From Clostridium pasteurianum (GTDB taxonomy: Bacteria > Bacillota > Clostridia > Clostridiales > Clostridiaceae): a DNA stretch of 64,000 nucleotides. Shown one piece after another: positions 26,601 through 61,922 of the stretch (the stretch's first letter is position 1; the number at the start of each line of letters is the position of its first letter). The DNA lies in contig NZ_MCGV01000001.1 of NCBI RefSeq assembly GCF_001705235.1, forward strand, positions 2,914,001 to 2,978,000, written 5' to 3'. The position numbers and the translations under genes are program-made. The notes below the pieces were generated by a model. That model was not told the DNA's origin and did no database searches. It saw only the letters and a list, made by a program, of their open reading frames with translations.

Positions 26601-27665
26601 GAGGAAAGTGTGGATGAGCTTATAAATAGATATCTTAAGGAGATACCTCATTCACAGTGGTTTGACTTACAGACAAGCCTTTACAATACCGCTCTCAGAG
26701 TATTTCCAGACAGGCTGCTTTTAAAGGAGCATTTTAGATGTGTTCCAGAAATAATTGGGTTTAGTAATAGTATGAGTTATTCAAACGAAATTGTACCACT
26801 AAGATATCCTAAGCCAAATGAAGCTTTTAGTGAGCCTGTAAAAGCAGTAAAGGTTAAAGATGGTTTTAAGGATAATATGAGACAAACTAATGAAAATGAG
26901 GCAAAAGCGCTTGTAGATGCTATAATAGGTTGCTGTTCTGATTCTAGATATAACGGTATGAGTATGGGAGTTATATCTCTCCTTGGAGATCAGCAGTCAG
27001 AGCTTATTGAAAGTATGCTTAGACATAGACTTGGTGAGCGAGAGATGCTTAAAAGAAAAATTTTATGTGGCGATGCTTTTTCATTCCAGGGTGATGAAAG
27101 GGATATAATGTTTTTGTCACTTGTGGTCTCAAATGGAAGTAAAATTTCATCCTTGACACGTGAATCGGATTTAAGGAGATTTAATGTTGCTGCAAGTAGG
27201 GCAAGAAACCAAATGTGGGTGTTTTATTCAGTAGATGAAGACAAGCTTAGCAGTAATTGTGTTAGAGCAAAATTTTTACGATATTGTCTTGATCCGGCTT
27301 TAAGCAAAAATAAAAATCATAAGAATAAGATGATACTTGCAGATGATTTTGAAAAGGATGTTTTTAATAATATAAGGCAGAGGGGATACAATGTGAAACC
27401 TTTTGACGATCTTAGAAAATATAAAGTGGACTTTATAGTTGAGGATTCTTCGAATAGAATTGCTATAGCATGTGATAGTGGAAGTTATAGTGATATGGAA
27501 AATTGGGAAAAGCAAAGAGAAAGACAAATGGCACTTGAAAGGGTAGGCTGGAAATTCTGTAGATTAAAGGGAAGTGAATTTTACAGAAATCCAAAAATAA
27601 CTATGGATAACTTATGTGTTAAATTGGAGAGCATGGGCATAAAAAGCATACAGACTGTGCAGTAA
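23604..27665 (+). CDS. Superfamily 1 (UPF1/Dna2-like) helicase with C-terminal nuclease-like domain
   Basis: A 1353-residue protein. Helicase motif I is VVVQGPPGTGKSHTIVN (about residue 295); motif Ia follows as RVLVTSQTGRALKVL; motif II is VVIFDESNQSD (about 965), motif III VGDDKQISPQ, and motifs V-VI GDAFSFQGDERD and VAASRARNQMWVF. Roughly 450 residues of charged, helical insertion separate motifs Ia and II. The last 110 residues (NVKPFDDLRKYKVDFIVED, then RERQMALERVGWKFCRL) resemble the Vsr/DUF559-type nuclease fold. It is probably a DNA/RNA translocase-nuclease. No partner genes nearby point to a defence system. Its last codons (Val-Gln-stop) form the outer arm of a family A palindrome. 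Confidence 0.8.
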   Translation: MDTKTKVKELFSYLLSIKNMNEDVIRDANKYDKLYWKHQLKSNKNIVVNLDNSEEIWLEVKKENKDLYDSFFQLYLRIQKNNENIEIVCGNYLLSWYKENKKIFHPIFTTKMELSFDAENGRFILKPYDNKTTLELDMFSGIKIPNMDEIMRVKEEFENGCIDVRDIKNVKDILYKIVHYLSSEINPKGEIQKNVVSINGIKASKYPVFYNEAVIIVRKTDNRLWNKELQNIIDSIDRDYPIPSPIKALVETQAIEEDKDAVEGWKKINDNLLFPLPYNEEQKEVVKKLSENFGVVVQGPPGTGKSHTIVNLVCHLLANGKRVLVTSQTGRALKVLSDKIPEEVRPLCISLLGDDTKSLRDLDDSVRRITENLSLNPDDINKEIKPLENELAFCRKYQEKTYTKIKELECIENKKLNIGGKSMTLMEIAKWVNRNENSLNWLDDEIPVDSVCPFNNGQFGHFIYLLNNISKEDLKKVNCSMKVLDEIPDYDNICRNFEIYTTKIHSKDKDNLKGWAINYKNETNIDYDKLIQIIGKAERKMEEIEKSWLKNVMRCYYFSDVERPEIKNLFVRSSEYIRHLSDIQTRIVSHKIAISDEMDYKKLFNDFKYIYSEVKRKGRISRIFKMRHRNLHYIFEKCTVDGDSLQYGDKIEILKLYLDKLDIQNKLMELWNNSVKKFKGEEIKKFDADTFIKLEKQIKDIGDIVNWNANFKNKVVLNMENITFLNKMDWYKKETYTKIKKGVLSIKNIAEYEKAKTFLSGLVKLSRSTYGIECIADAIESKDIKKIKKAYSEVQKLKSMVDTVKEINTFKNRLEKAAPIFTSKLLNSDDRSKYKNLNAAWKWKQMNDILDKSHKLKTENLEEIIENEKTKERVLIGKIVSKRAWLNEVLNTTNVQKRCLYAWLQAVKKIGRGTGKFVLKYRKMAQVEMEKCKDCIPVWIMPINKVIENIKLSSNLFDVVIFDESNQSDIFGISALFRGKRAVIVGDDKQISPQAVGIEEESVDELINRYLKEIPHSQWFDLQTSLYNTALRVFPDRLLLKEHFRCVPEIIGFSNSMSYSNEIVPLRYPKPNEAFSEPVKAVKVKDGFKDNMRQTNENEAKALVDAIIGCCSDSRYNGMSMGVISLLGDQQSELIESMLRHRLGEREMLKRKILCGDAFSFQGDERDIMFLSLVVSNGSKISSLTRESDLRRFNVAASRARNQMWVFYSVDEDKLSSNCVRAKFLRYCLDPALSKNKNHKNKMILADDFEKDVFNNIRQRGYNVKPFDDLRKYKVDFIVEDSSNRIAIACDSGSYSDMENWEKQRERQMALERVGWKFCRLKGSEFYRNPKITMDNLCVKLESMGIKSIQTVQ

Positions 27666-27851
27666 CAGTAGTTTGGAACATATTAAATAAAGCTCATAAG
27701 ACTAAGCCCCAAATAATGAAAATACTAAGAAATTTTAATAACTCGCTGGGAAGATTACTCAGACAAATTAAAATTACTAAGTATTTTTATTATTTGGCAC
27801 AAAGTCTTATTGAGCTTTATTTAAATTGTTTCCAAACTACTGTTACTGCAC
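27657..27851 (+). repeat. Family A palindrome, copy A1 (after the helicase gene)
   Basis: 195-bp inverted repeat. The outer arms 27657-27677 and 27831-27851 are a perfect 21-bp match and include the helicase codons Val-Gln-stop. Inner arms CCCAAATAATGAAAATAC and GTATTTTTATTATTTGG pair, and the loop holds the conserved ACTCGCTG ... CTCAGACAAATT. Subtype I (CTCATAAGACTAAG / CTTATTGAG arms). Confidence 0.85.
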
Positions 27852-27870
27852 ATATGGGGAAAGGCAAGGA

Positions 27871-27901
27871 AGATTTTCTTCCGCTTGGCTACTGAAAATC
27901 T
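27871..27901 (+). repeat. Family A tail hairpin
   Basis: AGATTTTC pairs with GAAAATCT around a TTCCGCTTGGCTACT loop, 20 bp after A1. The conserved GGCAAGGA precedes it. No U tract follows, so it is not a classical terminator. Confidence 0.7.
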
Positions 27902-27957
27902 GAAATTAAAGCTTGCATAAAACTAAGCTTTAAATTATAAAAATCATAAGTACCAAC

Positions 27958-28120
27958 GGAATTTTGGAACGGTTTAAATAAATTATGATAAATATTAAGG
28001 GCAAATTATCAAAAGACTTAGAGATTTCAACTGTTTGAACGATAGTGAGTTTTGAAATATCTTAGGATTTTAATAATTTGCCCTTTAGATTTATCAAATT
28101 TATTTAATGTTCCAAAATTC
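27958..28120 (+). repeat. Diverged family A palindrome, copy A2
   Basis: Ends GGAATTTTGGAAC and GTTCCAAAATTC pair, and inner GGGCAAATTATCAAAAGAC pairs imperfectly with the region ending TTAATAATTTGCCC. The canonical loop is lost. It lies tandem to A1, 107 bp downstream, and is not attached to a stop codon. Confidence 0.65.
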
Positions 28121-28205
28121 TATTTTAAACTTCAACTTGTGTTATATAACTCTGTAGTATAAAATAATTGTGGTTACACAATATTTTGAATGCGGGTGAT
28201 AAATA

Positions 28206-29039: not shown

Positions 29040-29112
29040 TAGTTGTTACATGTATTTCAAATAATATACATATGTGATATAATTGTAGAAGTGAAAAGAA
29101 AGGAAACTTGTT

Positions 29113-30912
29113 ATGGAGAAAAGTAAAGAATTTATAGATAAAATAGAGCAGCTTAAAATCGAAAAAACGAAATTGAAGCAAAATTACAATATGATGAGCC
29201 TTATGAGGTTTTGTGTTTTTATTGCAGCAGTTTCATTTACATATTTTTTAGTGAAAACTCCATCCATATTTATACTCTTAGGAGCAGTTTTATCTTATGT
29301 TTTATTTGTGTATATTTTAAAAATACATGGAAACATATCGGAGAATCTTTTAATAATAAATAGCTTGATTGATGTAAATGAAAAGTACTTAAAAAGAATA
29401 GATGGAACATGGACATCATTTGATGATTGCGGAGAAGAATTTAAAGAAGAGGGATATCCGTATTTAAGCGATTTAGATATATTCGGGAAGAAATCGCTAT
29501 TTCAACTCATAAACACAACTAAAACTTTTTTAGGAAGAAAAAAATTAGTTAAGGCTTTGAAGAATCCAGAAAAGGATGTTAAGAAAATAAAATTAAGGCA
29601 GAAGGCTGTAAATGAACTTAAAGAAAAATTTGATTTCTGTCAAAGAATAGAAGCACATGGGGGAGAGGACAATTTAAAAAGTAGTCCTGAAGAATTATTT
29701 TCTGATTTAAAAGATACAAGACGTCTTTTTAAAAATCTATGGTTTCAAAATTTTATAAGGGTACTTCCTGTTATATCTATAGTAGTGAGTATAGTTATAA
29801 TATATATGAGAATGAGAAATTACTACTGGGTTATAGGTGCTTTATTTGTATTACATATGTTTATAAATGTTATAGGATATTTAAAAATAGCCCCTGTTTT
29901 GAGCAGAGTATATAAAATAAGGAATGATTTGAAGTCGTATTTTAGAATACTTGATGATATAGAAAAAGAGGAATTTAAAAGTGATTATTTAACTAACTTA
30001 AAAGCTAGTCTATATTTTGACAATAAGCCGGCTTATAAAATATTTAAAAGTTTAACTAGTATAACAGAAAAACTTGAATTTAAAAATAATATTTTTGGCT
30101 ATATTATTTTTGGAATTATAATGCTTTGGGATTATCAGTGTATTTATGAATTTCAAAGTTGGAAAGAAAAATATGGACTTGAAGCTCTTAAGTGGATTGA
30201 TATTATAGGAGAAATTGAAAGTCTTTCAAGTCTTGCAGTGATTGCACAATTAAATAATCATATGGTATTTCCAGAGATTGCAGGAGAGGGACTTGTATTT
30301 GATGGAAAAGAAGTTGGTCATCCACTTATAGCTGAGGACAAGAGGGTAAATAATGATGTGGATATGACTGATAAAATTTTTATAATAACTGGTGCTAATA
30401 TGGCAGGCAAAACCACATTTTTAAGAACTGTTGGAATAAACTTAGTTTTGGCATATGCAGGGGCTCCTGTTTGTGCTTCTAGTCTAAAGTGCTCTGTGGT
30501 AGATATATATACTTCTATGAGGATAACAGACGATTTAAATAACGGTATGTCTACATTTTATGTTGAGCTTATGAGAATAAAGAAAATGATAGAGAATGTA
30601 AAGAAAAAAGCGCCAATGCTTTTTTTAATAGATGAAATATTTCATGGTACCAATGCTAATGATAGGATAGCAGGAGCAAAGAAGGTACTTCAAATTTTAA
30701 ATGAACCGTGGATTTTTGGACTCATCTCTACTCATGATTTTGAACTGTGTGAATTAGAAGATGATAAAAAAAGTAGAATAGTAAATTATCATTTTTCAGA
30801 AACGTATTTAGAAAATAAAATATTATTTGACTATAAAATTAAAACCGGACCATCAGATACTACAAATGCGAAATATTTAATGAAAATGATAGGTATAGAT
30901 GTTGCGAAATAA
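29113..30912 (+). CDS. Membrane-associated MutS-like ATPase
   Basis: A 599-residue protein with hydrophobic segments near residues 34-75 and 215-260 and an isolated MutS domain V at the C-terminus: FIITGANMAGKTTFLRTVGINL (Walker A), YTSMRITDDLNNGMSTFYVELMRI (the MutS ST-box region), MLFLIDEIFHGTNANDR (Walker B) and LISTHDFELCELE. It lacks the mismatch-recognition domains, so it is not MutS1; no Smr domain is present, so it is not MutS2. This arrangement is a known Firmicutes family of unknown function. Its Ala-Lys-stop codons form the arm of a family A palindrome. Confidence 0.82.
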   Translation: MEKSKEFIDKIEQLKIEKTKLKQNYNMMSLMRFCVFIAAVSFTYFLVKTPSIFILLGAVLSYVLFVYILKIHGNISENLLIINSLIDVNEKYLKRIDGTWTSFDDCGEEFKEEGYPYLSDLDIFGKKSLFQLINTTKTFLGRKKLVKALKNPEKDVKKIKLRQKAVNELKEKFDFCQRIEAHGGEDNLKSSPEELFSDLKDTRRLFKNLWFQNFIRVLPVISIVVSIVIIYMRMRNYYWVIGALFVLHMFINVIGYLKIAPVLSRVYKIRNDLKSYFRILDDIEKEEFKSDYLTNLKASLYFDNKPAYKIFKSLTSITEKLEFKNNIFGYIIFGIIMLWDYQCIYEFQSWKEKYGLEALKWIDIIGEIESLSSLAVIAQLNNHMVFPEIAGEGLVFDGKEVGHPLIAEDKRVNNDVDMTDKIFIITGANMAGKTTFLRTVGINLVLAYAGAPVCASSLKCSVVDIYTSMRITDDLNNGMSTFYVELMRIKKMIENVKKKAPMLFLIDEIFHGTNANDRIAGAKKVLQILNEPWIFGLISTHDFELCELEDDKKSRIVNYHFSETYLENKILFDYKIKTGPSDTTNAKYLMKMIGIDVAK

Positions 30913-31094
30913 TAGTATATTGAAACATTAAATAAATCTCATAAGTCTAAGTTTCAAATTATAAAAATACTAAGAAATTTTAATAACTCGCTGAAAAAAA
31001 GCTCAAACAAATTAAAGTTTCTAAGTATTTTTATAATTTGGAACAAGACTTATTGAGGTTTATTTAAATTGTTACCAAAATACTATTATTTCGC
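30904..31094 (+). repeat. Family A palindrome, copy A3 (after the MutS-like gene)
   Basis: The outer arms GCGAAATAATAGTA (30904-30917) and its exact complement (31081-31094) include the last codons Ala-Lys-stop. Subtype I arms; loop ACTCGCTGAAAAAAAGCTCA then ACAAATT. 191 bp long. Confidence 0.85.
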
Positions 31095-31112
31095 TTAGAA
31101 TAAAGCCAAGGA

Positions 31113-31143
31113 AGATTTTTTTCCGCTCCGCTGCGGAAAATCT
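31113..31143 (+). repeat. Family A tail hairpin
   Basis: AGATTTTTTTCCGC ... GCGGAAAATCT, 18 bp after A3, preceded by GCCAAGGA. It is the strongest version of the tail, with extra C-G pairs. Confidence 0.65.
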
Positions 31144-31174
31144 GAATTAAAAGTTTATACAGAGTCAAACTTTT

Positions 31175-31350
31175 AATAACTTGTATATGATAAGAGCGCT
31201 TATATTAGATTAAGAAGGATAACGATCATATACGGGGTTTGGGTCAAAGACCCAGTATCATTCTTAATTATCAATAGGCATTTTCTATATTATTACTAGC
31301 AACTTCATATTAGCATTTTCTAAATAGCCCAAACCTCACGTATGATAATA
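31175..31350. repeat. Family B intergenic repeat
   Basis: It contains ATGATAAGAGCGCTTATATT, AAGAAGGATAACGAT and, further on, the near complement ATCATTCTTAATTAT, CAATAGGCATTTTCTATA, then GCCCAAACCT. The same modules recur at 57045-57285 and 58650-58760. No coding capacity. Confidence 0.6.
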
Positions 31351-31365
31351 TTAATTCGCGATATG

Positions 31366-32510: not shown

Positions 32511-32715
32511 TTGCTTTCCCCCTCAGATTTAATTATAACTTCTTCTATGATAACACATTAGGTGGCATATGTAAAATTTTAGGTGTCAAAATCTTACATA
32601 ACAGTAAATTTGAATTAAAAAAACTGTTATATAATACAGGAGCATTTTATGTTAAAATATATAAGTGGATGCCTTTGAATCCAATTTAATAGTAAATGTT
32701 TAAGGAGTGGTAATA

Positions 32716-33612
32716 GTGTGTGTAAAATTAGAAAATGAAATTTTTAAAGTTGAGGTAGCAGAAAATGGAGCAGAACTTACAAGTCTAAAAAGTAAAAAAA
32801 ATGAAAATGAATATATTTGGACAGCAGATTCTAAGTATTGGGGAAGACATGCACCTATTTTGTTTCCTATAGTTGGAAGACTTAAAAATAATCAATATAG
32901 AATTAATGATAAGGTTTATGATTTACCCCAACATGGCTTTGCTAGAGATATGAAATTTCAAGTTGAAAGTAAAAGTGATGATAAGGTTGTGTTTAAGCTT
33001 TTATGGGATGAAGAAACTATAAAAAAGTACCCATATAAATTTGAATTAAGAGTTACATATGTACTTAATGGAGATACAATTGAAATTTCTTATAATGTAA
33101 AGAACGTAGATGATAAGGATATAGTATTTTCTATAGGTGCTCATACTGGATTTAACTGCCCAGTCATTGGAAAGCAATCTGAAGAGGATGAGTTAAAGTT
33201 CAATAATTATTATTTTGAGTTTGAAAAGCCAGAGACAGTAGGAGTTTCAAGACTTAATGGCGATTCTTTGCTTAGAAGAAATACATCTCCATTTTTGTAT
33301 GCTTCAAATATAATAAATTTAGATGAAAAATTGTTTAAGCAGGGAGTACTGATATTTAAAGATTTAAATTCAAAGAGTATTTCACTTAAGAATAACAAAA
33401 ATAAAAGTACAATAACAGTAAAATTTGATGGATTTCCTTATCTTGGATTATGGTCTAAAGAAAGTGGTGCACCATTTGTATGTATAGAACCATGGTTTGG
33501 TCATGCTGATTTTGAAGATTTTAATGGCGATTTTAGAGAAAAAGAAGATGGAATTAAACTTGAAGCAGGAAAAGAATTTACATGTACATATTCTATTAGT
33601 ATTAATGAATAA
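32716..33612 (+). CDS. Aldose 1-epimerase family protein
   Basis: A 298-residue galactose-mutarotase-like protein. AAGGAG (32702-32707) favours GTG 32716 as start rather than the GTG at 32707 that overlaps it. Motifs are AENGAELTSLKSKK, GRHAPILFPIVGRLKNN with its Arg, LPQHGFARDM (catalytic His), SIGAHTGFNCP (second His) and CIEPWFGHADFE. The catalytic Glu region lies in the C-terminal third. It belongs to the YeaD/LacX-like branch that interconverts sugar anomers, possibly of hexose phosphates. It is monocistronic, divergent from the 3D gene, and followed by a family A palindrome. Confidence 0.85.
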   Translation: MCVKLENEIFKVEVAENGAELTSLKSKKNENEYIWTADSKYWGRHAPILFPIVGRLKNNQYRINDKVYDLPQHGFARDMKFQVESKSDDKVVFKLLWDEETIKKYPYKFELRVTYVLNGDTIEISYNVKNVDDKDIVFSIGAHTGFNCPVIGKQSEEDELKFNNYYFEFEKPETVGVSRLNGDSLLRRNTSPFLYASNIINLDEKLFKQGVLIFKDLNSKSISLKNNKNKSTITVKFDGFPYLGLWSKESGAPFVCIEPWFGHADFEDFNGDFREKEDGIKLEAGKEFTCTYSISINE

Positions 33613-33618: not shown

Positions 33619-33810
33619 GGGCAGTAACAGTATTTTAGAACATTAAATAAAACTCATAAGACTAAGCTTCAAATTATAAAAATCCTAAGAAGTTTCAATA
33701 ACTCGCTAAAAAGAAGCTCAGACAAATTGAAACATCTAAGTCTTTTTATAATTTGAAGCAAAGTCTTATTGAGTTTTATTTAAATTGTTCTTAAAATACT
33801 GTTACTGCCC
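33619..33810 (+). repeat. Family A palindrome, copy A4 (after the epimerase gene)
   Basis: The outer arms GGGCAGTAACAGTATTTTA (33619-33637) and its exact complement (33792-33810) start seven bases after the stop. Inner arms CTTCAAATTATAAAAA and TTTTTATAATTTGAAG are perfect complements. The loop is ACTCGCTAAAAAGAAGCTCA then GACAAATT. Subtype I. Confidence 0.88.
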
Positions 33811-33830
33811 ATAAAGGGTAAAGGCAAGGA

Positions 33831-34015: not shown

Positions 34016-35086
34016 ATGAGTAAGTTTTGGAATGAGCGTGTAAAAAAGTTAAAACCATATGTTCCAGGTGAACAGCCTAAAGATCAGAAATATATAAAAT
34101 TAAATACAAATGAAAATCCATATCCACCGTCGCCTAAGGTAATAGAGGCTATAAATAAGGTTGCAGATTATAGACTTAAATTGTACCCAGATGCCAATTG
34201 TGATTCACTTAAGAAAACTATTGCTGAATATTACAACTTATCTCAAGATGAAATTTTTATAGGCAATGGTTCAGATGAAGTTTTGGCATTTTCTTTTATG
34301 ACTTTTTTTAGTCCTAAGAAAACTGTATTTTTTGCAGATATAACATACAGTTTCTATAAGGTTTATGCCAATTTATTAGATTTGAATTGCAAATTAATTC
34401 CTTTAAAAGATGACTTTAGTATTGATGTAGATGAGTTTTGTAAAGATAATGGAGGAGTAATAATTCCAAATCCTAATGCGCCTACTGCAAAATATATTGG
34501 ACTTGAAGCAATAAAGAAAATATTGGATTCAAATCCTGACTCTGTTGTTATAATAGACGAGGCCTATATAGATTTTGGTGGCGAATCAGCAGTTAAATTT
34601 ATAAATGATTATCCGAACCTTTTAATAATTCAAACATTTTCTAAATCAAGAGCTTTAGCTGGTCTTAGAGTTGGTTTTGCAATGGGAAATCATGAGCTTA
34701 TAGAAGGACTTGAGAGAATAAAAAATTCTATAAATTCTTATACTTTGGATACAATTGCACTTGCAGGAGCTGAAGCTGCTTTTAAGGATAAAGAATATTT
34801 TGAAGATACAAGAAAAAAAATCATAAAAACTAGAGATAGAGTAAGTGAAGAATTAAGAAAAATAGGATTTAAAGTTATTGATTCAAAAGCTAACTTTATA
34901 TTTATAAGTCATCCTAAGGTTTACGCAGAGGATATATTTAAAGAATTAAGAAGAAGAGGAATATTAGTGAGATACTTTAATGATTCAAGAATTGATAATT
35001 ATTTGCGAGTCAGCATAGGGAATGATGAAGAGATGGATAGGTTTGTGAAAGAAATTAAAGAAATTAGCAGCATTTTGGAACGTTAA
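34016..35086 (+). CDS. hisC: Histidinol-phosphate aminotransferase
   Basis: A 356-residue PLP enzyme of fold type I, subgroup beta. Motifs: KLNTNENPYPPSP, YPDANCDSLKKTIAEYY, FIGNGSDEVLAF, IPNPNAPTA, VIIDEAYIDFGG, and FSKSRALAGLRVGFAMG with the PLP-binding Lys in TFSKS. It transaminates histidinol phosphate in histidine synthesis; it stands apart from other his genes, so a broader aromatic or phosphonate aminotransferase role is possible. The last nine codons (KEISSILER) lie inside the outer arm of a family A palindrome, so its C-terminus is partly defined by that repeat. Confidence 0.85.
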   Translation: MSKFWNERVKKLKPYVPGEQPKDQKYIKLNTNENPYPPSPKVIEAINKVADYRLKLYPDANCDSLKKTIAEYYNLSQDEIFIGNGSDEVLAFSFMTFFSPKKTVFFADITYSFYKVYANLLDLNCKLIPLKDDFSIDVDEFCKDNGGVIIPNPNAPTAKYIGLEAIKKILDSNPDSVVIIDEAYIDFGGESAVKFINDYPNLLIIQTFSKSRALAGLRVGFAMGNHELIEGLERIKNSINSYTLDTIALAGAEAAFKDKEYFEDTRKKIIKTRDRVSEELRKIGFKVIDSKANFIFISHPKVYAEDIFKELRRRGILVRYFNDSRIDNYLRVSIGNDEEMDRFVKEIKEISSILER

Positions 35087-35247
35087 ACAAATTCTATAAA
35101 TCTAAGATCAAAAAATAATGAAATACTAAGAGTTTTTAATAACTCCCTATCGGTCAGACAAATTAAAAACTCTAAGTATTTCATTATTTTTTGACCAAGA
35201 TTTATTAGAATTTTTTTAAATCGTTCCAAAATGCTGCTAATTTCTTT
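35057..35247 (+). repeat. Family A palindrome, copy A5 (overlapping the hisC 3' end)
   Basis: Perfect 26-bp outer arms at 35057-35082 and 35222-35247; the left one is coding (last nine hisC codons). Inner arms GATCAAAAAATAATGAAATAC and GTATTTCATTATTTTTTGACC pair. The apex is changed to AACTCCCTATCGGTCAGACA, the most divergent loop of the complete copies. Subtype II (ATAAATCTAAG / AAGATTTATTAG). Confidence 0.88.
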
Positions 35248-35292: not shown

Positions 35293-35440
35293 GGGCTTAG
35301 ACTATGTTTGAGGTAAATGTTAAGACAGCATGTATTTTATACAGTAAGTAGATTAAAAAGTTATTACTAATCAGTAAATTAAGTTATAAGCTTTTCGTAG
35401 TGGAACGGAGAAAAGGTATCATTGTTTCACTTATAAAGCG

Positions 35441-35530
35441 AAGCAATAGTATTTTGGGAACGATTTAAATAAAATTCAATAAGCCTTGCCCAAAATTATA
35501 AAAAGACTTAGAAATTTTATTGTTATAATC
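35441..35530 (-). repeat. Half family A element, copy A6, inverted
   Basis: Read on the - strand it is the 3' half only: ATTTCTAAGTCTTTTTATAATTTTGGGC, then AAGGCTTATTGAATTTTATTTAAATCGTTCCC and AAAATACTATTGC. The loop and 5' half are missing. It abuts the decayed patatin gene and is sense relative to it. Confidence 0.65.
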
Positions 35531-51252: not shown

Positions 51253-51825
51253 ATGAAAATAAAAACGAGAGATATGATTTTAGTAGCGCTATTTGCAGCT
51301 TTAACGGTTGTGGGTGGATATATAAGTATACCAGTTGGGAGTGTACCTATATCACTTCAGAGTTTTTTTAGTTTACTTTCTGGATTATTACTTGGACCAT
51401 ATTTAGGGGCATTATCACAATTAATTTATGTAATACTTGGAATTGTAGGTTTGCCAGTGTATGCGGGTGGAACCGGGGGAATTTCATCTGTTTTTCATCC
51501 ATCCTTTGGATATTTGATTGGATTTATTATAGCACCCATTATAGTTGGTATTATTACAAGGAGCAGCAAAGTGGGAATTTTAAGAGTAGCAGTTGCATGC
51601 ATTTTAGGAAGCTTATCAATTTATATAATAGGCTTGCCTTATATGTATATAATACTAAGGTATGTTTCAAATGTTAATATAGGTATACTTAAGACTTTTG
51701 AAACAGGTTTCTTTATATTTATTCCAGGGGATGCTGTTAAGTGTATAATAGCATCAATTATAGGTGTTAAAATACTTCCTGCCATTAGAAAAATAAGGAG
51801 AAGGAACAATGCTTTGGAACATTAA
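51253..51825 (+). CDS. bioY: Biotin transporter substrate-binding subunit BioY
   Basis: A 190-residue ECF-transporter S component with six helices. Typical sequence: LVALFAALTVVGGYISIPVGSVPISLQSFFSLLSGLLLG, LSQLIYVILGIVGLPVYAGGTGG and the Phe-Pro-Gly-Asp end FIFIPGDAVKCIIAS. It binds biotin and uses shared EcfAAT energising subunits encoded elsewhere. No biotin synthesis genes are adjacent. A BirA operator covers its promoter. The last residues (NALEH) are encoded by the start of a family A palindrome. Confidence 0.93.
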   Translation: MKIKTRDMILVALFAALTVVGGYISIPVGSVPISLQSFFSLLSGLLLGPYLGALSQLIYVILGIVGLPVYAGGTGGISSVFHPSFGYLIGFIIAPIIVGIITRSSKVGILRVAVACILGSLSIYIIGLPYMYIILRYVSNVNIGILKTFETGFFIFIPGDAVKCIIASIIGVKILPAIRKIRRRNNALEH

Positions 51826-51990
51826 AAAAATCCTATAAATCTAAGGTGAAAAAATCATAAAATCCTAAGATATTTCAATAACTCGCTGAAAAGAAGCTCA
51901 GACAAATTGAAATATCTAAGTATTTTATGATTTTTTCATCAAGATTTATTAGAATTTTTTTCAATCGTTCCTTCAGCATTGTTCCTTCTC
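51798..51990 (+). repeat. Family A palindrome, copy A7 (overlapping the bioY 3' end)
   Basis: Outer arms GAGAAGGAACAATGCT (51798-51813) and exact complement (51975-51990) include bioY codons RRNNA. Inner arms AAAAAATCATAAAAT and ATTTTATGATTTTTT pair. The loop is ACTCGCTGAAAAGAAGCTCA then GACAAATT. Subtype II, 193 bp. Confidence 0.88.
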
Positions 51991-52007
51991 GTTTGAGGTG
52001 GTATAAG

Positions 52008-52089: not shown

Positions 52090-52435
52090 GGGACGGCTGA
52101 TTATTAGGTGTTGACATTGCTGCGCTTGTCAGCATGGTGAGGGAATCAACTTTGATTCGACAGTTAGTTGGGGTAAAGATTAATGATTTTTTCACCAAGA
52201 TTTATTATTTTTTTTCAGATGCCTTAAATCGTTCCTTCAGCATTGCTCCTTCTCGTTTGAGGCGGTACAAGGAAAAAATTCCTCCGTGCCTATGGAATTC
52301 TGGATGGTAAAATTTATTTAATGATTTGAAACATTGTGGGACTAGAAGATTGAGAGAGGGCTGGTACCGAGGTGCTGACATTGCTTCGCTCGTTAATAGG
52401 TGAGAGATTTAATTGGAGCAAAGGTTAATAGGTTT
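52090..52435. repeat. Family C fragments and partial family A copy A8
   Basis: Family C blocks (GGTGTTGACATTGCTGCGCTT and GAGGTGCTGACATTGCTTCGC) lie at about 52107 and 52370. Between them 52185-52307 is the 3' half of a family A element with tail hairpin, including the bioY-type outer end CAGCATTGCTCCTTCTCG, so it is a partial duplication of A7's 3' side. No gene. Confidence 0.6.
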
Positions 52436-54448: not shown

Positions 54449-55243
54449 ATGATTAAAAAAATAATGGCGGCTATAGTAACTATATGTGCTGCAATAATTT
54501 TTGGAATATCAATATTTGGAATTAAAGAGGCATTGAGTTTAACAACGGCTCCAAGGGACAAGTATATAGCTAAAAGTACAACTAAAACTGCAAGTGTCAA
54601 TCCATCTAAATTTTTAAGCAATACTTACAATGTATTGGTGATGGGAGATTCACTGGCCAAAGGAACCGGTGATGAAAATGGAAAGGGCTTTGGTGGATAC
54701 TTTTCTGATTATCTTAAAAGTAAGAAAAATAAAAATGTTAAAACTGACAATATAGCAATTAATGGAGATGTGTCAAATGGTCTTCTTAAAGTAGTGGAGA
54801 ATAAGGATAACAACGATTTAATAAAAAATGCTAATATTATATTCATATCCATTGGTGGAAATGAGATAAAGGGATTTAGAAGTGAAGGCAGTTTAACAAG
54901 TATGGAGGTAAAAAGTGTTGAAAATAATTACTTAAATAATATAAGAAATATATTTAAATTTATAAGAAATAAAAATTCTAAATGTATTGTTATATTTATA
55001 GGGCTATATAATCCTTTTGGAACTGAAATTGCTAATGATAAGGTTCAGCTTCTAAATTCCTGGAATTATGATACTCAAAATATTGTTACTAGTGATTCAA
55101 ATTCTGTTTTTGTTCCCACTTATGATATTTTTCAATATAATACAAAGAAATATCTTACAATAGACAACTTCCATCCTAATAGTTCTGGGTATAAAGCTAT
55201 AGCCGAGAGGATAGAACAGATACTGGAAAATAAAGTAAATTAA
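54449..55243 (+). CDS. Exported SGNH/GDSL-family hydrolase
   Basis: A 264-residue protein with an N-terminal membrane anchor or signal (residues 7-27). Block I VLVMGDSLAKGTGDENGKGFG (Ser), block II around INGDVSNG (Gly), block III IFISIGGNEIKGF (Asn) and block V IDNFHPNSSGYKAIA (Asp and His) complete the SGNH set. Family members deacylate lipids or wall polymers. It is co-transcribed with the BcrAB-like transporter. Its Val-Asn-stop codons are mirrored at the far end of an interrupted family A palindrome. Confidence 0.85.
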   Translation: MIKKIMAAIVTICAAIIFGISIFGIKEALSLTTAPRDKYIAKSTTKTASVNPSKFLSNTYNVLVMGDSLAKGTGDENGKGFGGYFSDYLKSKKNKNVKTDNIAINGDVSNGLLKVVENKDNNDLIKNANIIFISIGGNEIKGFRSEGSLTSMEVKSVENNYLNNIRNIFKFIRNKNSKCIVIFIGLYNPFGTEIANDKVQLLNSWNYDTQNIVTSDSNSVFVPTYDIFQYNTKKYLTIDNFHPNSSGYKAIAERIEQILENKVN

Positions 55244-55336
55244 CAACGCTTTGGAACATTAAAAAAATTCTATAAATCTAGGCAAAAAAATCATAAAATC
55301 CTAAGATATTTCAATAACTCGCTGAAAAAATGCTCA
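55235..55336 (+). repeat. Family A palindrome, copy A9, 5' half
   Basis: The 5' half starts with GTAAATTAACAA, covering Val-Asn-stop of the SGNH gene, runs through AAAAAAATCATAAAATCC and ends at the loop ACTCGCTGAAAAAATGCTCA. The 3' half (56905-56995) lies beyond an IS110 element. The two halves total 193 bp, the same length as A7. Confidence 0.85.
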
Positions 55337-55460
55337 AACCTGCTAAGTAAAGTCAAGTGTTTTTATTAAAAAATTCCAAAGAAATTTTTCAGTAAAATAG
55401 GGCAACTTTAAAAGAACCTTCTTACAGAAGATTTTTTTAAAATGCTCTATTTTTATTTTT

Positions 55461-56663
55461 TTAGTTTTTCAAAATTTCTGAAACTCTAGCATAATATATT
55501 CTCAAAAATTTATTTAATCCTGCTATTTTAGCCTGCTTCTTTGCCTTACCCTCTGATTCTTTTTTTATTATATAGTCATACACTGCTGTATCTTTAGTGG
55601 GGACTCTACATTTTATGCTTTTCATTATCTCATAACCTGTTTTTCTAAGATATCGAGATCCTCGTTTTGATATTTTTCGGTTGTTTCCATTAAAGTTTCC
55701 CGATTGATAAGGTGGTGCATCTATTCCTGAATAAGCCACAAGAGCCTTTGCACTGTAATACTTTCTTACATCACCTATTTCCGCAATAATTCTTGGTGCC
55801 AGTCTTTCTCCTACACCGTTCATATTCAAAACAACATCATATTCTGGTAATAGCTTGGCAAGTTCCTTCATTCGTGATAATATTTTATTTAAGGTTATTC
55901 CAGTCGAATGGATGCCCTTTATAGTTTCTAAGATGATCATTTTTGTACCTGACATCTTAGAAGGCATAGTTGTGATACTATTTTTAGCGAGAATATATAT
56001 TTCATGAGCTTTATTCTCGCTAAATTGGTATCCTTCTTTTTTTGTCCACTTCTTATAGTTTTCAGTAAATTTATTTTGGCTTAATTTAATAATATTGTCA
56101 TAATGCCAGTATTTTTGAACAAAATCTGATAACTTATCTTTTGCAAAGTTAGGTGAATTTGAAGCTAGAAGTCCTGCAATTCCTGGCATTGTTTCATCTA
56201 AAAGGTTTGAAAGAATTACTTTAAGTTTTATTCTTAAGGACATAAACTGAAAATATTCTCTTGAAAGAGCTTTAAGTTCATAATATATATCTTCTTCTAT
56301 TTTATAATTACTTAGTCCATGCCAATTGTCTAAGCCAAATTTCGAGATTGTTTTTGAGTCTAATTTATCTGTTTTACCTTTTCTAATAGATATACTTGCA
56401 TACTTTTTCATAAGCATGGGATTAACAACAGAAACCCAAATTCCTCTTTCCTGTAGATAAGATACTACTGGAATATGATAATGTCCTGTTGCTTCCAAAA
56501 TTACTTTACTTTCTTCGTCAAAACTTATAATCTTATCAGCCAGCTTTTTTAGTTCTTCTAAAGTATGTTTAACTTCAAAAGGTTTCTCTAAAATTTCACC
56601 ATATAATTTGCGAATACAAACTGTACTTTTGTTTTTTGAAACGTCTATGCCAACACTAATCAT
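55461..56663 (-). CDS. IS110-family DEDD transposase/recombinase
   Basis: A 401-residue recombinase; AAAGGAG before ATG 56663 decides the start, giving MISVGIDVSKNKSTVCI. The N-terminal RuvC-like domain has Asp in GIDVSK, Glu in VILEATGHY and the Asp pair in KTDKLDSKTISKFG. The C-terminal Transposase_20 domain has LNMNGVGERLAPRIIAEIGD and YSGIDAPPYQSGNF with the conserved Ser of the QSG motif. The reading frame is intact, so the element may be active. IS110 enzymes recombine donor and target DNA guided by a bridge RNA from the element's noncoding end. Confidence 0.93.
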   Translation of the reverse strand: MISVGIDVSKNKSTVCIRKLYGEILEKPFEVKHTLEELKKLADKIISFDEESKVILEATGHYHIPVVSYLQERGIWVSVVNPMLMKKYASISIRKGKTDKLDSKTISKFGLDNWHGLSNYKIEEDIYYELKALSREYFQFMSLRIKLKVILSNLLDETMPGIAGLLASNSPNFAKDKLSDFVQKYWHYDNIIKLSQNKFTENYKKWTKKEGYQFSENKAHEIYILAKNSITTMPSKMSGTKMIILETIKGIHSTGITLNKILSRMKELAKLLPEYDVVLNMNGVGERLAPRIIAEIGDVRKYYSAKALVAYSGIDAPPYQSGNFNGNNRKISKRGSRYLRKTGYEIMKSIKCRVPTKDTAVYDYIIKKESEGKAKKQAKIAGLNKFLRIYYARVSEILKN

Positions 56664-56904
56664 AATATCGACTCCTTTGCTAAAAATTTTGTCCATCCAC
56701 TTATTACTACTCATTTTTGTTCGTTACACGGAAGCTAATTATAGTTCCAACCTGCTTAATCGAATATACGTAACAAGGAATGGGTGATAGTTTGAGCCAC
56801 GGAAGCAAAATTCCAACAATTGAATCATCAGCCCATTTCTTATTATATTAAAATAAGTGTAGGTACTTAATCAAATGAGATTAAGTGTCTACACTTATAG
56901 TACA
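56664..56904 (-). ncRNA. Candidate IS110 bridge-RNA region
   Basis: The 241-bp segment upstream of the transposase start is unusually long and structured. Read on the - strand it has a stem AGTGTAGACACTTAATC / GATTAAGTACCTACACT near the element end, and then two related modules, TTGGAATTTTGCTTCCGTGG and TTGGAACTATAATTAGCTTCC, each able to fold into a small internal-loop hairpin. A long 5' noncoding end with two loops is the layout of IS621-type bridge RNAs. The loop-to-target match was not worked out base by base. Confidence 0.6.
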
Positions 56905-56995
56905 AGACAAATTGAAATATCTAAGTATTTTATGATTTTTTCACCAAGATTTATTAGAATTTTTTTAAATTGTCCCTTCAGCATTGTTAATTTAC
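56905..56995 (+). repeat. Family A palindrome, copy A9, 3' half
   Basis: Continues with AGACAAATTGAAATATC, ATTTTATGATTTTTTCACC and ends TTGTTAATTTAC (56984-56995), the exact complement of the SGNH gene's last codons at 55235-55246. A type-two tail hairpin follows at about 57013-57043. Confidence 0.85.
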
Positions 56996-57044
56996 TTTTG
57001 GAGTAAAACAAGGAAAAAATTCCTCCGTACCTACAGAATTTTAT

Positions 57045-57285
57045 TTGTGTCATAGACCCATTATCCTTCTTAATTATAAATAGGCATTTTCTATACCATT
57101 ACTAACAACTTTATATTATCATTGTCTAAATTGTCCCAACCCTACATAATATAGAGAGTGCTTGTATTAGGTTGAGAAGGATAATGGGCAAAGCCCAAGC
57201 CTCGTGTAATATAGAGAGCGCTTGTATTAGGTTAAGAAGGATAATGGGCTAAAGCCCAAACCTTGTGTATGATAATACTCACTTG
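57045..57285. repeat. Family B repeat with an internal tandem duplication
   Basis: It contains CCCATTATCCTTCTTAATTA, TAGGCATTTTCTATACCATT, then two direct copies (about 57150 and 57210, roughly 60 bp apart) of TAATATAGAGAG(T/C)GCTTGTA ... GAGAAGGATAATGGGC, complementary to the first block. No ORF. The remaining 57286-57473 is AT-rich upstream sequence for the next gene. Confidence 0.55.
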
Positions 57286-57473
57286 AAGATTGTGGGTTTG
57301 TAAGTAGAAAAGGTTATATGCGAATATAGTGTAGGAGGATTTCTGAGTGAAACTAAAATTGAAGCTAGTCCCAATTAAGTTTCACTACAGAAATCCTTTA
57401 TTGACATCTATTTTTACTAATTGTATAATAGCCACGTAAATGAAGCTAATATATGATGTTAGGTATGGTGATT

Positions 57474-58124
57474 ATGATGAAAACAGTGGTAACACTTATA
57501 AGACACGGAGAAACGGAGTGGAATACTAAGGGCAAGTTTCAGGGATGCCATGATATAGATCTTACTGAAGATGGAATTGGACAAGCTAAGCTAGTTTCTA
57601 AAAGATTAGATGGAAAGTTTGATTGTGTATATACAAGTCCTTTGAAAAGAGCGTTCCATACTGCAAAAATAATTTCGTCTGTTAAAGGAATTGATCCTAT
57701 AATAGAGGATGAATTAAGAGAAATAAATTTTGGAAAGTGGGAAGGCTTAACTGTAAATGATATAAGAAGTAATTTTACTAAAGAGTTTGAAATATGGAGA
57801 AGTGACACTGAAGAAGGACCTATATGCGGTGGAGATTTGAGTACTAAAAATGCTTCACTTAGAGCAAAAGCTTCTATACTTAAGATTGTTGGTGCTAATA
57901 GAGGAAAGCATATTATAATAGTAGCTCATGGTGGAATAATAAAAGCAGGTCTTATAGGGCTTTTTGACTGGAATATGACAATGTACCATAAATTGATATT
58001 AGGGAATACTGCAATTTGTAAGTTAGAATTTGATGATGATAATAATCCAAGGATTATAACAATAAATGATACAAACCATTTAATAGGTGAGTATGAAGTG
58101 AAAGATCCAAATGAAGCTAAGTAA
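57474..58124 (+). CDS. Histidine phosphatase (phosphoglycerate mutase) family protein
   Basis: A 216-residue enzyme of the PhoE/CobC/GpmB type. MKTVVTLIRHGETEWN has the RHG catalytic His, DCVYTSPLKRAFHTA the Arg, LREINFGKWEGLT the Glu-containing box, and HIIIVAHGGIIKAGL the second His. The ATG is uncertain: five ATGs occur between 57453 and 57477, and no strong ribosome site separates them; I chose 57474. It could be a broad phosphatase, alpha-ribazole phosphatase or cofactor-dependent mutase. Its Ala-Lys-stop codons belong to the arm of the following palindrome. Confidence 0.8.
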   Translation: MMKTVVTLIRHGETEWNTKGKFQGCHDIDLTEDGIGQAKLVSKRLDGKFDCVYTSPLKRAFHTAKIISSVKGIDPIIEDELREINFGKWEGLTVNDIRSNFTKEFEIWRSDTEEGPICGGDLSTKNASLRAKASILKIVGANRGKHIIIVAHGGIIKAGLIGLFDWNMTMYHKLILGNTAICKLEFDDDNNPRIITINDTNHLIGEYEVKDPNEAK

Positions 58125-58309
58125 CGGCGCTCTGGAACATTAAAAAAATTTTATAAATCTAAGGTAAAAAAATCGTAAAATCCTAAGATATTTCAATAAC
58201 TCGCTGAAAAAATGCTCAGACAAATTGAAATATCTAAGTATTTTACGATTTTTTCACCAAGATTTATTAGAATTTTTTTAAATGGTTCCAAAGCGCTGTT
58301 ACTTAGCTT
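58114..58309 (+). repeat. Family A palindrome, copy A10 (overlapping the mutase-family gene 3' end)
   Basis: Outer arms AAGCTAAGTAAC (58114-58125) and exact complement (58298-58309) include Ala-Lys-stop. Inner arms AAAAAATCGTAAAAT and ATTTTACGATTTTTT show a C-G pair where A7 has an A-T pair. The loop is ACTCGCTGAAAAAATGCTCA then GACAAATT. Subtype II, 196 bp; type-two tail hairpin at 58325-58352. Confidence 0.88.
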
Positions 58310-58369
58310 AGAGGGTAAAGCAAGGAAGAAATTCCTCCGTGCCTACGGAATTTCAAAAATATTAGAGCC

Positions 58370-58512
58370 TAAATCGTAAAATCTTAAGGTGTTCCAATAA
58401 CTGGCATATGATAATGGCTAGACAGATTGAAATATCTAAGTATTTTGTGATTTTTCTACCAAGATTTATTGGATTCTTTTTAAATCGTTCTCAAAATACT
58501 GTTACTTAGCTT
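58370..58512 (+). repeat. Truncated family A copy A11, tandem to A10
   Basis: The outer 5' arm is missing; it begins within the inner arm (AAATCGTAAAATCTTAAGG), has an altered apex (AACTGGCATATGATAATGGC) and a full 3' arm ending GTTACTTAGCTT, identical to A10's gene-specific end. A tail hairpin follows at 58527-58556. Confidence 0.7.
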
Positions 58513-58559: not shown

Positions 58560-59060
58560 AAATCTTATTGTAACTGGGGATTGAGTTAAGGACTCAGTAT
58601 ACTTCTGCATAAAATACAGGCTATCTTAATATTTAAGGGTAATAATTTTTAGGTTTATTGGTAAAAAATCTAATTAGGAATCGTATAATATTAAGAATGC
58701 TTATATTGGGATAAGGAGGATAAGTATCATTCTTGAGGTTTGGTGTATTGACATTGTTCCACTCGCCAGTGGGTAAAGCCATAATCTATTAATTAGTACA
58801 GCAAAGTTAATGCTAACATCTTGGTGTTAGCATATTACAACATTTTGGTATCTATAGATGATGAGGAACTTCTATTCTTAATTTAACAGTTATATTTAAG
58901 CAGTTATTTTATAATCAATATGCATATTTATAAATAAAGTTGAATATTTATGAATAAAATTATATAATTATATTAAATCATGCGTAATATTTAAGTTATT
59001 TACTAAAGATTGTAGAATGTTTGGGACATTTACGATTTTTTGATTTAAGGAGATGTAGGT
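58560..59060. other. Intergenic mosaic upstream of argJ
   Basis: No gene. It holds a family B fragment (58685-58740, AATGCTTATATTGGGATAAGG), a family C fragment (GGTGTATTGACATTGTTCCAC at 58741) and a short inverted repeat at 58810-58840 (TTAATGCTAACATC/GGTGTTAGCAT). The last 150 bp are AT-rich and may hold the argJ promoter. Confidence 0.5.
58919..58965 (+). promoter_or_regulatory. Possible ArgR (ARG box) region upstream of argJ
   Basis: GTTGAATATTTATGAATAAA resembles half-sites of the Gram-positive ARG box (TGAATAA/TTATTCA type), with another weak half-site at TATTTATAAATAAA. Such AT-rich matches arise easily by chance. Confidence 0.3.
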
Positions 59061-60227: not shown

Positions 60228-60373
60228 ATAAATATAATTATTTTATAAATTAAGCAAATTTAATTTAATAGTTGGATTTTTTTTACGATATTAATTATAG
60301 TGGTTTTTTTATCATAGTAATGTTATAAAATTTGTTGTTAATTACAATTTGTATTTTAAGTGATTAATATTGT

Positions 60374-60402
60374 TTGTAGTCAAAACAATATTATGATATA
60401 AT
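60374..60402 (+). promoter_or_regulatory. Sigma-A-type promoter of the GGDEF-EAL gene
   Basis: TTGTAG (60374-60379), 17-bp spacer, TATAAT (60397-60402), 72 bp before the start codon. Confidence 0.6.
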
Positions 60403-60473
60403 CAGGTAATAAAGTAAAAAAACGAAAAAAATGAAATCTATGGTAAAAATACGATAATTAGGGTACGAAAGTA

Positions 60474-61733
60474 GTGAGTTCTATGTGGAAGAGTATAACA
60501 GATTTTACTAAAGAATATAAAAGAAACAATTCACTATTAGGCTATGATAAGTTTGCTGTATATCTTATTGATATATCTAATTTTAGAGTTTACAATTATA
60601 AGTTTGGATATAAAAATGGAGATATACTATTAAGAAAAATTTTGGTTAGTTTGGATGATGAATTAGGAGACAGCTGCCAAGTTATAAAAATGGATGGAGA
60701 CAAGTTTGCTGTTGTATCTCCGTTTTCTCAAAAGGATGATATTATTGCCACAATAAAAAAAATATTTTGGTTCTTTGATTTTTTTACTCATATTTATAAT
60801 ATAAAGTTTAAAACGGATATAAATATGGGAATTTCAATGTATCCTCATGATGGTAGTGATTTTGACGGTATCTTAATTTGCTCAGAAATGGCACTCAAAT
60901 TTGCTAAGATGGAAGAAAAAACTAACTATAAATTTTTTGACCATGATATTTGTGACAAATTATTAAAGAGTGAAAAAATTATTGATGAAATAACCGAAGC
61001 AGTTGAAAATAATGAATTTGAATTGTATTATCAACCTCAGGTTGATATTAATATAAAAAATGTATATGGTGTAGAGGCACTTCTTAGATGGAGGCATCCT
61101 AAAAAGGGAATTATAGGTCCAAATTATTTTATAGATGTCATTGAAAAAAATGGTATGATAACTAGAGTGGGGAAATTTGTTATAAAACAAGCTTTTGAAC
61201 GATTGAAAAAGTTTAATGATATGGGATATAAAAATTTAAGCATGTCCATAAATATAAGTGAAAGTCAGTTGTGTGAAAATTCATTTTTAGAATTTGTGGA
61301 GAAAGCTATATCGAGTACAGAAATAGACCCTCAGTATGTTATATTTGAAATAGTTGAAAGAAGTATTTTGAATGATAAAGTTATTAACATATTAAATGGA
61401 TTAAGGGACATAGGTATAAAAATTTATATTGATGATTTTGGGACAATGTATTCATCTTTAAATTACTTATATAGTATACCATTAGATGGTATAAAATTAG
61501 ACAAGTCTTTTATAGATAAAATATATGAATCCAAACGTGATTTTATAATTACAAAAAATATAATAAACCTTGCTGAAGATTTGAATCTTGATGTTGTGGC
61601 AGAGGGTGTAGAATATAAAGAACAAATTTCATGTTTGAATAATATGAATTGCAATAAAATACAGGGATTTATATTTAGTAAGCCTGTTGACGAAAATAGC
61701 GTTACCGATTTTTTTGTGAAATTTAAAATGTGA
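60474..61733 (+). CDS. Degenerate GGDEF plus EAL domain c-di-GMP phosphodiesterase
   Basis: A 419-residue cytoplasmic protein; the start may be GTG 60474 or ATG 60483. Residues about 20-150 are a GGDEF fold in which the signature is MDGDKF instead of GG(D/E)EF, so cyclase activity is not expected. Residues about 165-415 are an EAL domain with the catalytic set present: VEALLRWRHP, SINISESQL, FEIVERSI, IYIDDFGTMYSSLNYL (usual DDFGTGYSS, here Met for Gly), IKLDKSFI and DVVAEGVE. It most likely hydrolyses c-di-GMP. No sensor domain is present. Confidence 0.87.
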   Translation: MSSMWKSITDFTKEYKRNNSLLGYDKFAVYLIDISNFRVYNYKFGYKNGDILLRKILVSLDDELGDSCQVIKMDGDKFAVVSPFSQKDDIIATIKKIFWFFDFFTHIYNIKFKTDINMGISMYPHDGSDFDGILICSEMALKFAKMEEKTNYKFFDHDICDKLLKSEKIIDEITEAVENNEFELYYQPQVDINIKNVYGVEALLRWRHPKKGIIGPNYFIDVIEKNGMITRVGKFVIKQAFERLKKFNDMGYKNLSMSINISESQLCENSFLEFVEKAISSTEIDPQYVIFEIVERSILNDKVINILNGLRDIGIKIYIDDFGTMYSSLNYLYSIPLDGIKLDKSFIDKIYESKRDFIITKNIINLAEDLNLDVVAEGVEYKEQISCLNNMNCNKIQGFIFSKPVDENSVTDFFVKFKM

Positions 61734-61734
61734 A

Positions 61735-61922
61735 GCGAAGAAACAGTATTTTACAACATTAAAAAAAATTCCATAAATCTAAGATAAAAAAATCATAAAA
61801 TCCTAAGAAATTTCAATAACTCACTGCGTTCAGACAAATTGAAATTTCTAAGGATTTTATGATTTTTTTATCAAGATTTATTAGAATTTTTTTAAATCGT
61901 TCTTAAAATACTGTTTCTTCAC
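61735..61922 (+). repeat. Family A palindrome, copy A12 (after the GGDEF-EAL gene)
   Basis: Begins just after the TGA. GAAGAAACAGTATTTTA pairs with TAAAATACTGTTTCTTC, with one mismatch further out. Inner arms AAAAAAATCATAAAATCC and GGATTTTATGATTTTTTTA pair. The loop is shorter (ACTCACTGCGTTCAGACAA). Subtype II arms followed by a type-one tail hairpin (61943-61973). Confidence 0.85.

What the first reader, a model, noticed from the sequence alone, without database searches (positions are those of the whole stretch)
27657..61922. A family of about 190-bp palindromes sits exactly at gene 3' ends, always in sense orientation
Eight near-complete copies (27657, 30904, 33619, 35057, 51798, 55235 split by an IS, 58114, 61735) plus four partial or diverged ones (27958, 35441, 52185, 58370) were found. 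Each near-complete copy begins within the last codons or within about seven bases after a stop, and the asymmetric loop and tail show they all read the same way as the upstream gene. The half copy at 35441, on the - strand, is sense to the - strand patatin pseudogene. No copy follows the polysaccharide operon, ileS, ccpA or argJ, which have their own ends. Either the element inserts at 3' ends or it works as a 3'-UTR RNA. I do not know a described family with these features.
Basis: partly seen in the sequence, partly recalled or inferred. Interest (0 to 1): 0.88.

Follow-up and report, generated by a model that had tools for sequence, protein, structure and literature searches.

The report
Mobile palindromes at gene 3' ends
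Many bacteria carry long DNA palindromes that share one short tip sequence, and in this Clostridium they sit in large numbers right at the ends of unrelated genes, where an element-free relative usually has the normal stop signal for transcription.

Summary
The repeats are real and genome-wide: about 250 full copies estimated (68 in a 1.24-Mb sample). Of 70 copies tabulated, 52 start -60..+30 nt from the stop of a sense gene; 10 are antisense to their upstream gene, so "always" is too strong. The mirror test gives 26:0. In element-free congener G003, 8 of 11 orthologous ends carry an intrinsic terminator there. In the window genome terminators are depleted after the element: 2/46 against 134/352 within 150 nt, 12/46 against 167/352 up to 600 nt (p=0.007).

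The apex AACTCGC-n-GCTCARACA defines a wider superfamily: 76 of 225 genomes of the order, and other phyla with unrelated stems. The antisense (template) strand folds better (97/108, 55/64, 47/60), against a sense 3'-UTR RNA. An IS110 element targets the apex at 4 of 4 loci. No Rfam match in the sequences scanned; no paper found in the searched library.

Best reading: REP-like mobile elements that take the terminator's site as 3' borders. The enzyme that moves them and their function are unproven.

The parts
27657..27853 (+). full palindrome at 3' end of AAA/helicase gene 23604-27665 (stop lies inside the element)
   Evidence: G003 orthologue has a terminator there
27946..28131 (-). diverged near-complete palindrome in antisense orientation (exception to the rule)
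   Evidence: 87 bits
30904..31096 (+). full palindrome at 3' end of MutS-like gene 29113-30912
31097..31144 (+). tail of the same unit: GCAAGG-like motif plus second hairpin
33619..33812 (+). full palindrome 6 nt after stop of aldose epimerase gene 32707-33612
35059..35247 (+). full palindrome; aminotransferase ORF 34016-35086 ends inside it
35436..35519 (-). half copy (model 111-195)
51798..51992 (+). full palindrome; BioY ORF 51253-51825 ends inside it
52182..52255 (+). tandem partial unit (right arm) carrying the same locus-specific outer arm
55235..55339 (+). left half of a palindrome at 3' end of GDSL lipase gene 54449-55243, up to the tip
55340..56905 (-). IS110-family element (transposase 55461-56714) inserted in the palindrome tip
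   Evidence: 4 of 4 loci of this IS in the genome sit in a tip
56906..56998 (+). right half of the split palindrome
58116..58309 (+). full palindrome at 3' end of histidine phosphatase gene 57453-58124
58318..58512 (+). tandem partial unit with the same outer right arm
61735..61924 (+). full palindrome 1 nt after stop of GGDEF-EAL gene 60474-61733

Best explanation
A multi-copy, non-autonomous palindromic element family, REP-like in lifestyle, defined by one conserved apex and carried by many bacteria. In this Clostridium a copy takes the site of the gene's intrinsic terminator, directly at the stop codon, and acts as a mobile 3' border. Shown: position, orientation, a terminator at the same site in most tested G003 orthologues, depletion (not absence) of terminators after the element, turnover between species, apex conservation with unrelated stems, and that the antisense/template strand is the better-folding strand. 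Inferred: the hairpin on that strand (template DNA, or RNA transcribed towards the gene from downstream) halts transcription at the gene border, mainly against antisense or convergent transcription, so the original terminator can be lost. Also inferred: an unidentified enzyme recognises the apex and moves the unit.
For: 52 of 70 copies at a sense stop; mirror test 26:0 own genome, 32:4 other Clostridia. Convergent pairs can carry one sense copy for each gene (L073, L105, L109). 8 of 11 G003 orthologous ends have a terminator of -12 kcal/mol or better starting 2-52 nt after the stop. Terminators with equal filters: 2/46 against 134/352 within 150 nt, 12/46 against 167/352 up to 600 nt or the next gene (p=0.007); strongest where the next gene is on the same strand, 3/19 against 115/224. 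None of 8 best-matching genes in G001 and G002 has a copy. Antisense strand more stable in 97/108, 55/64 and 47/60. All-phyla isolated mismatches, sense strand: A.C 69 to G.U 27, C.T 46 to G.A 11. Outside the window genome the antisense apex is a GNA triloop in 81 of 109 triloops, next to tandem G.A.
Against: No transcript data. The element is not itself a canonical terminator by my criterion (0/52). The 150-nt window after the palindrome lies largely in the element's own tail; further down, 12 of 46 have a terminator, perhaps the native one displaced, and with a convergent neighbour the difference is small (9/27 against 52/128). A reversed-sequence control gave 6/46 and 51/352. 10 of 70 copies are antisense to the upstream gene; in genus g21 one composite unit lies between divergent genes. 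A.C versus G.U is near 1 in the own genome and other Clostridia (77:74, 48:41), and C.T versus G.A is not significant in the latter (26:15). The window family's own apical loop is longer and not GNA. With DNA parameters the tip alone differs little between strands (median -4.6 and -4.9). All-phyla orientation bias is weak (23:10). No antisense promoter enrichment.
Confidence: 0.38

Rival explanations
1. Selfish palindromic DNA with no host role. It moves as single-stranded DNA folding on one strand, and an unknown enzyme inserts it at terminator hairpins or at strands opened by terminating polymerase, which fixes orientation and 3'-end position. Native terminators are displaced downstream or decay.
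For: Multi-copy, absent from G003, turnover (0 of 8 in G001/G002; 6 of 14 copies differ between G143 and G144); strand-asymmetric folding; sharp 5' border with variable 3' extent; tandem partial units; a terminator further downstream at 12 of 46 copies; no favoured neighbour function in the families shown.
Against: No transposase found: Y1 absent in G001 and G011, RVT_1 absent in six high-copy genomes; other classes not tested. Terminators depleted overall (12/46 against 167/352), which a purely passive insert need not cause.
Confidence: 0.36
2. A sense-strand 3'-UTR RNA hairpin that stabilises or regulates the mRNA, kept by selection on base pairing.
For: Sense orientation at the stop; covariation.
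Against: No G.U excess over A.C in the sense strand, and a significant opposite bias across phyla; sense strand is the less stable one.
Confidence: 0.08
3. An antisense non-coding RNA gene downstream of each host gene, whose hairpin is the functional product.
For: Antisense strand folds better, most at the tip with RNA parameters (103 of 108).
Against: No promoter enrichment on that strand; between genera I saw sequence conservation only at the apex.
Confidence: 0.12
4. Ordinary MITE of a resident IS, possibly IS110.
For: An IS110 element is associated with the tips.
Against: IS110 copies interrupt finished palindromes at one identical place with constant IS ends (4 of 4 loci): the palindrome is the target, not the derivative. 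Stems unrelated between genera.
Confidence: 0.06

Closest known systems
REP / BIME / REPIN elements
   Same: Multi-copy extragenic palindromes, single or paired, whose ends often supply the stop codon to flanking ORFs (PMC3733652, passages); targets of IS110 elements such as IS621 and ISPpu9/10 (PMC1525189, passages).
   Different: Median length 144-239 bp (range 35-280) rather than 20-65 bp; GTAG/CTAC/CGTC/GACG near an end in only 3, 2, 0 and 1 of 60 own copies; tip conserved while the stem is free; no link to Y1/RAYT transposase.
Stem-loop repeat families catalogued in PMC2267715 (section 8 and passages read), e.g. ERIC, NEMIS, RUP
   Same: Mostly intergenic stem-loop repeats, many 60-200 bp.
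   Different: The clostridial families listed (Clop-1 93 bp, Clot-1 74, Clot-2 31, Clot-3 90) are shorter; apex and stop-codon placement not mentioned in what I read; sequences not compared.
Intrinsic (Rho-independent) terminators with A/T flanks in low-GC Firmicutes (PMC1590033, passages)
   Same: Place: mostly within about 50 nt after the stop; hairpins that may be bidirectional.
   Different: Repeated family, about 195 nt, no compact stem plus T-run (0 of 52).
MITEs
   Same: Short non-autonomous repeats with inverted symmetry.
   Different: No parent transposase found, no target duplication shown, oriented to genes.
d(GCGAAGC)-type DNA mini-hairpins (recalled; search listing only)
   Same: GC-GNA-GC apex on the antisense strand of many palindromes outside the window genome.
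   Different: Here embedded in tandem G.A and a long stem, in many genomic copies; the window family's loop is longer.

Membership tests
REP / BIME | repeated extragenic palindrome in many copies | tested here: met
   68 full copies in 1.244 Mb
REP / BIME | 20-65 bp hairpin | tested here: not met
   median 192 bp own genome, 239 other Clostridia, 144 all phyla
REP / BIME | GTAG or CGTC tag at one end | tested here: not met
   GTAG 3, CTAC 2, CGTC 0, GACG 1 of 60 own copies within 25 nt of an end; not tested in other genera
REP / BIME | RAYT (Y1) transposase in the genome | tested here: not met
   PF01797 absent in G001 and G011 (high copy), present in G003 (none); 1 of 30 Y1 loci has the tip motif
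MITE | terminal inverted repeats and target-site duplication | tested here: inconclusive
   palindromic ends, but variable 3' extent; no clean empty site between G143 and G144
MITE | parent transposase with the same ends | tested here: inconclusive
   none among the 25 of 175 neighbour families printed; RVT_1 and Y1 not linked; other transposase families not tested
Rfam RNA families (release 15) | covariance-model match | tested here: not met
   window at gathering scores: only the T-box; 11 other loci at E<=1: only microRNA models, below their gathering scores
intrinsic terminator | compact stable stem followed by T-run | tested here: not met
   0 of 52 elements at dG<=-9
intrinsic terminator | ends transcripts | not testable with these tools
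   no RNA data held
retroelement / group II derivative | reverse transcriptase supplied in the genome | tested here: not met
   PF00078 absent in G000, G001, G002, G011, G023, G143
loop-defined superfamily described here | AACTCGC-n-GCTCARACA at the tip of a palindrome | tested here: met
   palindromic at the 99% shuffled threshold: 36/36 own sample, 64/71 distinct in other Clostridia, 113/131 all phyla; with at least 25 pairs 89/131 all phyla; viral contigs only 23/125

The most novel reading that the evidence does not exclude
An undescribed, pan-bacterial class of mobile element whose only constant part is a mini-hairpin apex folding on the template strand. It is carried by arms that are rewritten freely in each lineage, and it colonises gene ends as a portable transcription border, taking the terminator's site at up to hundreds of places per genome without a Y1 transposase or reverse transcriptase.
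Probability: 0.33. Interest if true: 0.93.

Novelty: new variant of a known kind. Interest (0 to 1): 0.76.

Why it matters
If right, one short motif explains many long intergenic palindromes in bacteria that match no Rfam family here. It would show that terminators can be displaced or replaced on a large scale by a mobile element. It makes two open questions testable: what reads an apex shared from Clostridia to Marinobacter, and how an element finds the ends of genes in the right orientation. It also gives a defined genomic target for an IS110 element.

Tried and rejected
Sense 3'-UTR RNA as the selected molecule: disfavoured by mismatch types and energies. RAYT/Y1 transposase as mover: no link. 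Reverse transcriptase: absent in six high-copy genomes. Partner gene next to the palindromes: 105 neighbour proteins, 175 families, none in more than 3 proteins, no transposase among the 25 printed. Phage origin: only 23 of 125 viral matches are palindromic; 11 of these lie near a stop on one side only, 10 of them antisense. Replication-fork orientation as the cause: element genes 30/49 leading against 745/949 (p=0.008), a weak bias the other way; the baseline was all genes, not transcription-unit ends. Antisense promoter in the tail: no enrichment. Clean empty site between G143 and G144: one presence/absence with diverged flanks, two remnants, one apparent deletion between short repeats. Plasmid and phage BLAST with window 30900-31150: no match. 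Host codons copied into the far arm: first suspected, but most outer arms are variants of the family consensus. Near-total loss of terminators: my first count (2/51 within 150 nt) mostly looked into the element's own tail; the wider count shows depletion, not absence.
Full report
OBSERVATION. The window repeats were re-found by direct search and read. Sixty copies from the same genome, found by two DNA searches that each scored only 40 of about 380 candidates, were aligned. The profile was run on 59 evenly spaced 20-kb stretches plus the window: 115 non-overlapping hits, 68 of them full length, in 1.244 Mb, or roughly 250 full copies in 4.68 Mb. The exact apex pattern alone occurs 164 times. 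Of 70 copies passing a length and score cut, 60 are sense and 10 antisense to the upstream gene; 52 start -60..+30 nt from the stop of that sense gene. The commonest offset is -9, where the element's own TAA is the stop. A mirror-image control on the exact-apex copies gave 26 sense against 0 antisense, 1 both, 8 neither. The copy at 27946-28131 is antisense, so 'always' is wrong. Convergent gene pairs in L073, L105 and L109 carry one sense copy for each gene.

ANATOMY. A copy is a palindrome of about 195 nt whose outer base lies at or overlaps the stop codon. It is followed by a GCAAGG motif with a second hairpin, and in longer units by a third hairpin and TATGATAATA: about 420 nt in all. Zero to three tandem partial units follow, with a period of about 200-265 nt. 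The 5' border is sharp (59 of 60 loci covered from the start, 1 just before it); the 3' border is not. Stem pairs covary strongly. Pairs of conserved CTAAG motifs leave fixed A.A mismatches.

WHAT THE SITE LOOKED LIKE. The congener G003 has no profile hit in 240 kb, syntenic with a 238-kb G000 region holding 30 hits. Of 15 non-tandem sense copies there, 11 had an orthologue in the G003 region and 4 did not. At those 11 ends G003 has a terminator of -12 kcal/mol or better in 8, starting 2-52 nt after the stop (with longer fold windows). Protein C-termini agree to within four residues. First count in G000: a canonical terminator within 150 nt after the element in 2 of 51 copies, against 138 of 369 gene ends without element, 37 of 79 in G003 and 9 of 310 inside genes; the element itself 0 of 52 (Fisher p=1e-7 and 4e-8). 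On checking, I applied the same gap filter to both groups and looked further: 2/46 against 134/352 within 150 nt, 9/46 against 155/352 within 300, 12/46 against 167/352 up to 600 nt or the next gene (p=0.007). Reversed control: 6/46 and 51/352. The effect is strong before a same-strand gene (3/19 against 115/224) and small before a convergent one (9/27 against 52/128). So terminators are depleted, not absent, and some may have been pushed downstream. For this I lowered my best explanation from 0.42 to 0.38 and raised the selfish rival from 0.33 to 0.36.

TURNOVER. For four element-bearing window genes, the best matches in G001 and G002, which are full of the family, carry no exact apex near the stop (0 of 8), nor do those in G003 (0 of 4; diverged copies could be missed). 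Between G143 and G144, whose larger aligned blocks are 87-96% identical, 8 of 14 G144 copies in aligned spans are shared (6 of 6 in one region, 2 of 8 in the other).

REACH. A covariance model of the stem found at least 50 copies (capped) in 3 of 4 genus members and hits in 13 of 58 genomes counting all kin; the other genera shared the apex but not the stem. The apex pattern occurs in 76 of 225 genomes of the order; the reversed control is zero except in genus g25, without which it is 59 of 208. It occurs in 38 of 398 genomes of the phylum, with a control hit in 4. 113 of its 131 matches stand at a palindrome tip above a 99% shuffled threshold, and 89 have at least 25 pairs. Stems differ between genera. 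Orientation bias is 32:4 in other Clostridia after dropping duplicate loci (62 tested, 8 both, 18 neither) and 23:10 across phyla (95 tested, 60 neither), where my ORF caller is weak in GC-rich DNA. In viral contigs only 23 of 125 matches are palindromic.

WHICH STRAND. If the sense RNA hairpin were under selection, G.U should exceed A.C. Isolated mismatches gave G.U to A.C 74:77 in the own genome, 41:48 in other Clostridia (not significant) and 27:69 across phyla (p=2e-5). G.A to C.T was 5:55, 15:26 (not significant) and 11:46. The own-genome C.T count may lean on one conserved position. The antisense strand folds more stably in 47 of 60, 55 of 64 and 97 of 108 palindromes with RNA parameters, and in 52, 50 and 92 with DNA parameters; for the tip alone the DNA difference is small. 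Outside the window genome the antisense apex reads TGTYT-GA-GC-loop-GC-GA-GTT: 81 of 109 triloops are GNA; 19 of 39 tetraloops are GNNA, only 7 of them GNRA. The window family has a longer apical loop. GNA mini-hairpins are known as very stable in DNA (recalled; one search saw listings only). I cannot separate template DNA from antisense RNA.

MOVEMENT. Neither Y1 transposase nor reverse transcriptase tracks the family, and the neighbour families shown are ordinary. An IS110-family element (PF01548 and PF02371) has four loci in the genome, one of them broken; all four interrupt a palindrome at the same place in the apex. This mirrors IS621 and other IS110 elements in REPs (PMC1525189, passages).

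KNOWN OR NOT. Rfam 15: no match in the window at gathering scores beyond a T-box, and nothing above gathering at 11 other loci. Six literal apex sequences occur in no paper of the PMC library. Topic searches listed no description that I recognised. PMC2267715 (section 8 and passages), PMC1590033, PMC3733652 and PMC1525189 (passages) describe stem-loop repeats, 3'-end preference, REP stop codons and IS targets, but not this apex in what I read. Most subscription papers are not covered.

CONCLUSION. It works like a REP family that has settled on the terminator's site, but it fails REP membership on length, tag and RAYT. A transcription-border role is my best inference (0.38); pure selfishness with terminator targeting is nearly as likely (0.36).

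Noticed in passing
window 55340-56905; also G000:C1:1364446, 4275416, 754891: An IS110-family element whose four loci in the genome all lie at the same place in a palindrome apex; its bridge RNA target is presumably the apex.
   Followed up: yes
window 31185-31347, 57044-57252, 58686-58731: A second intergenic repeat family (GGATAATGGGC... with a reverse-complementary partner) next to several palindromes.
   Followed up: no
genomes G023, G143, G144: In another genus some units are composites of about 690-770 bp: two palindromes in opposite orientation around an internal hairpin, REPIN-like; one lies between divergent genes.
   Followed up: partly
loci L401, L429, L468, L496 and others (viral contigs): Shorter (about 71-bp) palindromes with the same apex in some viral contigs lie antisense near a gene end (10 of 11 one-sided cases, probably not independent), the reverse of the bacterial rule.
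   Followed up: no
L470 (viral contig): The apex pattern recurs four times at spacings near 3,114 bp.
   Followed up: no
genus g25 genomes: The reversed control pattern also has hits in most genomes of this genus, so some other repeat may match both; its counts are not usable.
   Followed up: no
   Followed up: no
window 40008-40087 and 41844-41923; 38495-38553 and 50126-50184: Repeated segments within the ORF-rich 37-51 kb region (pairs of similar genes).
   Followed up: no
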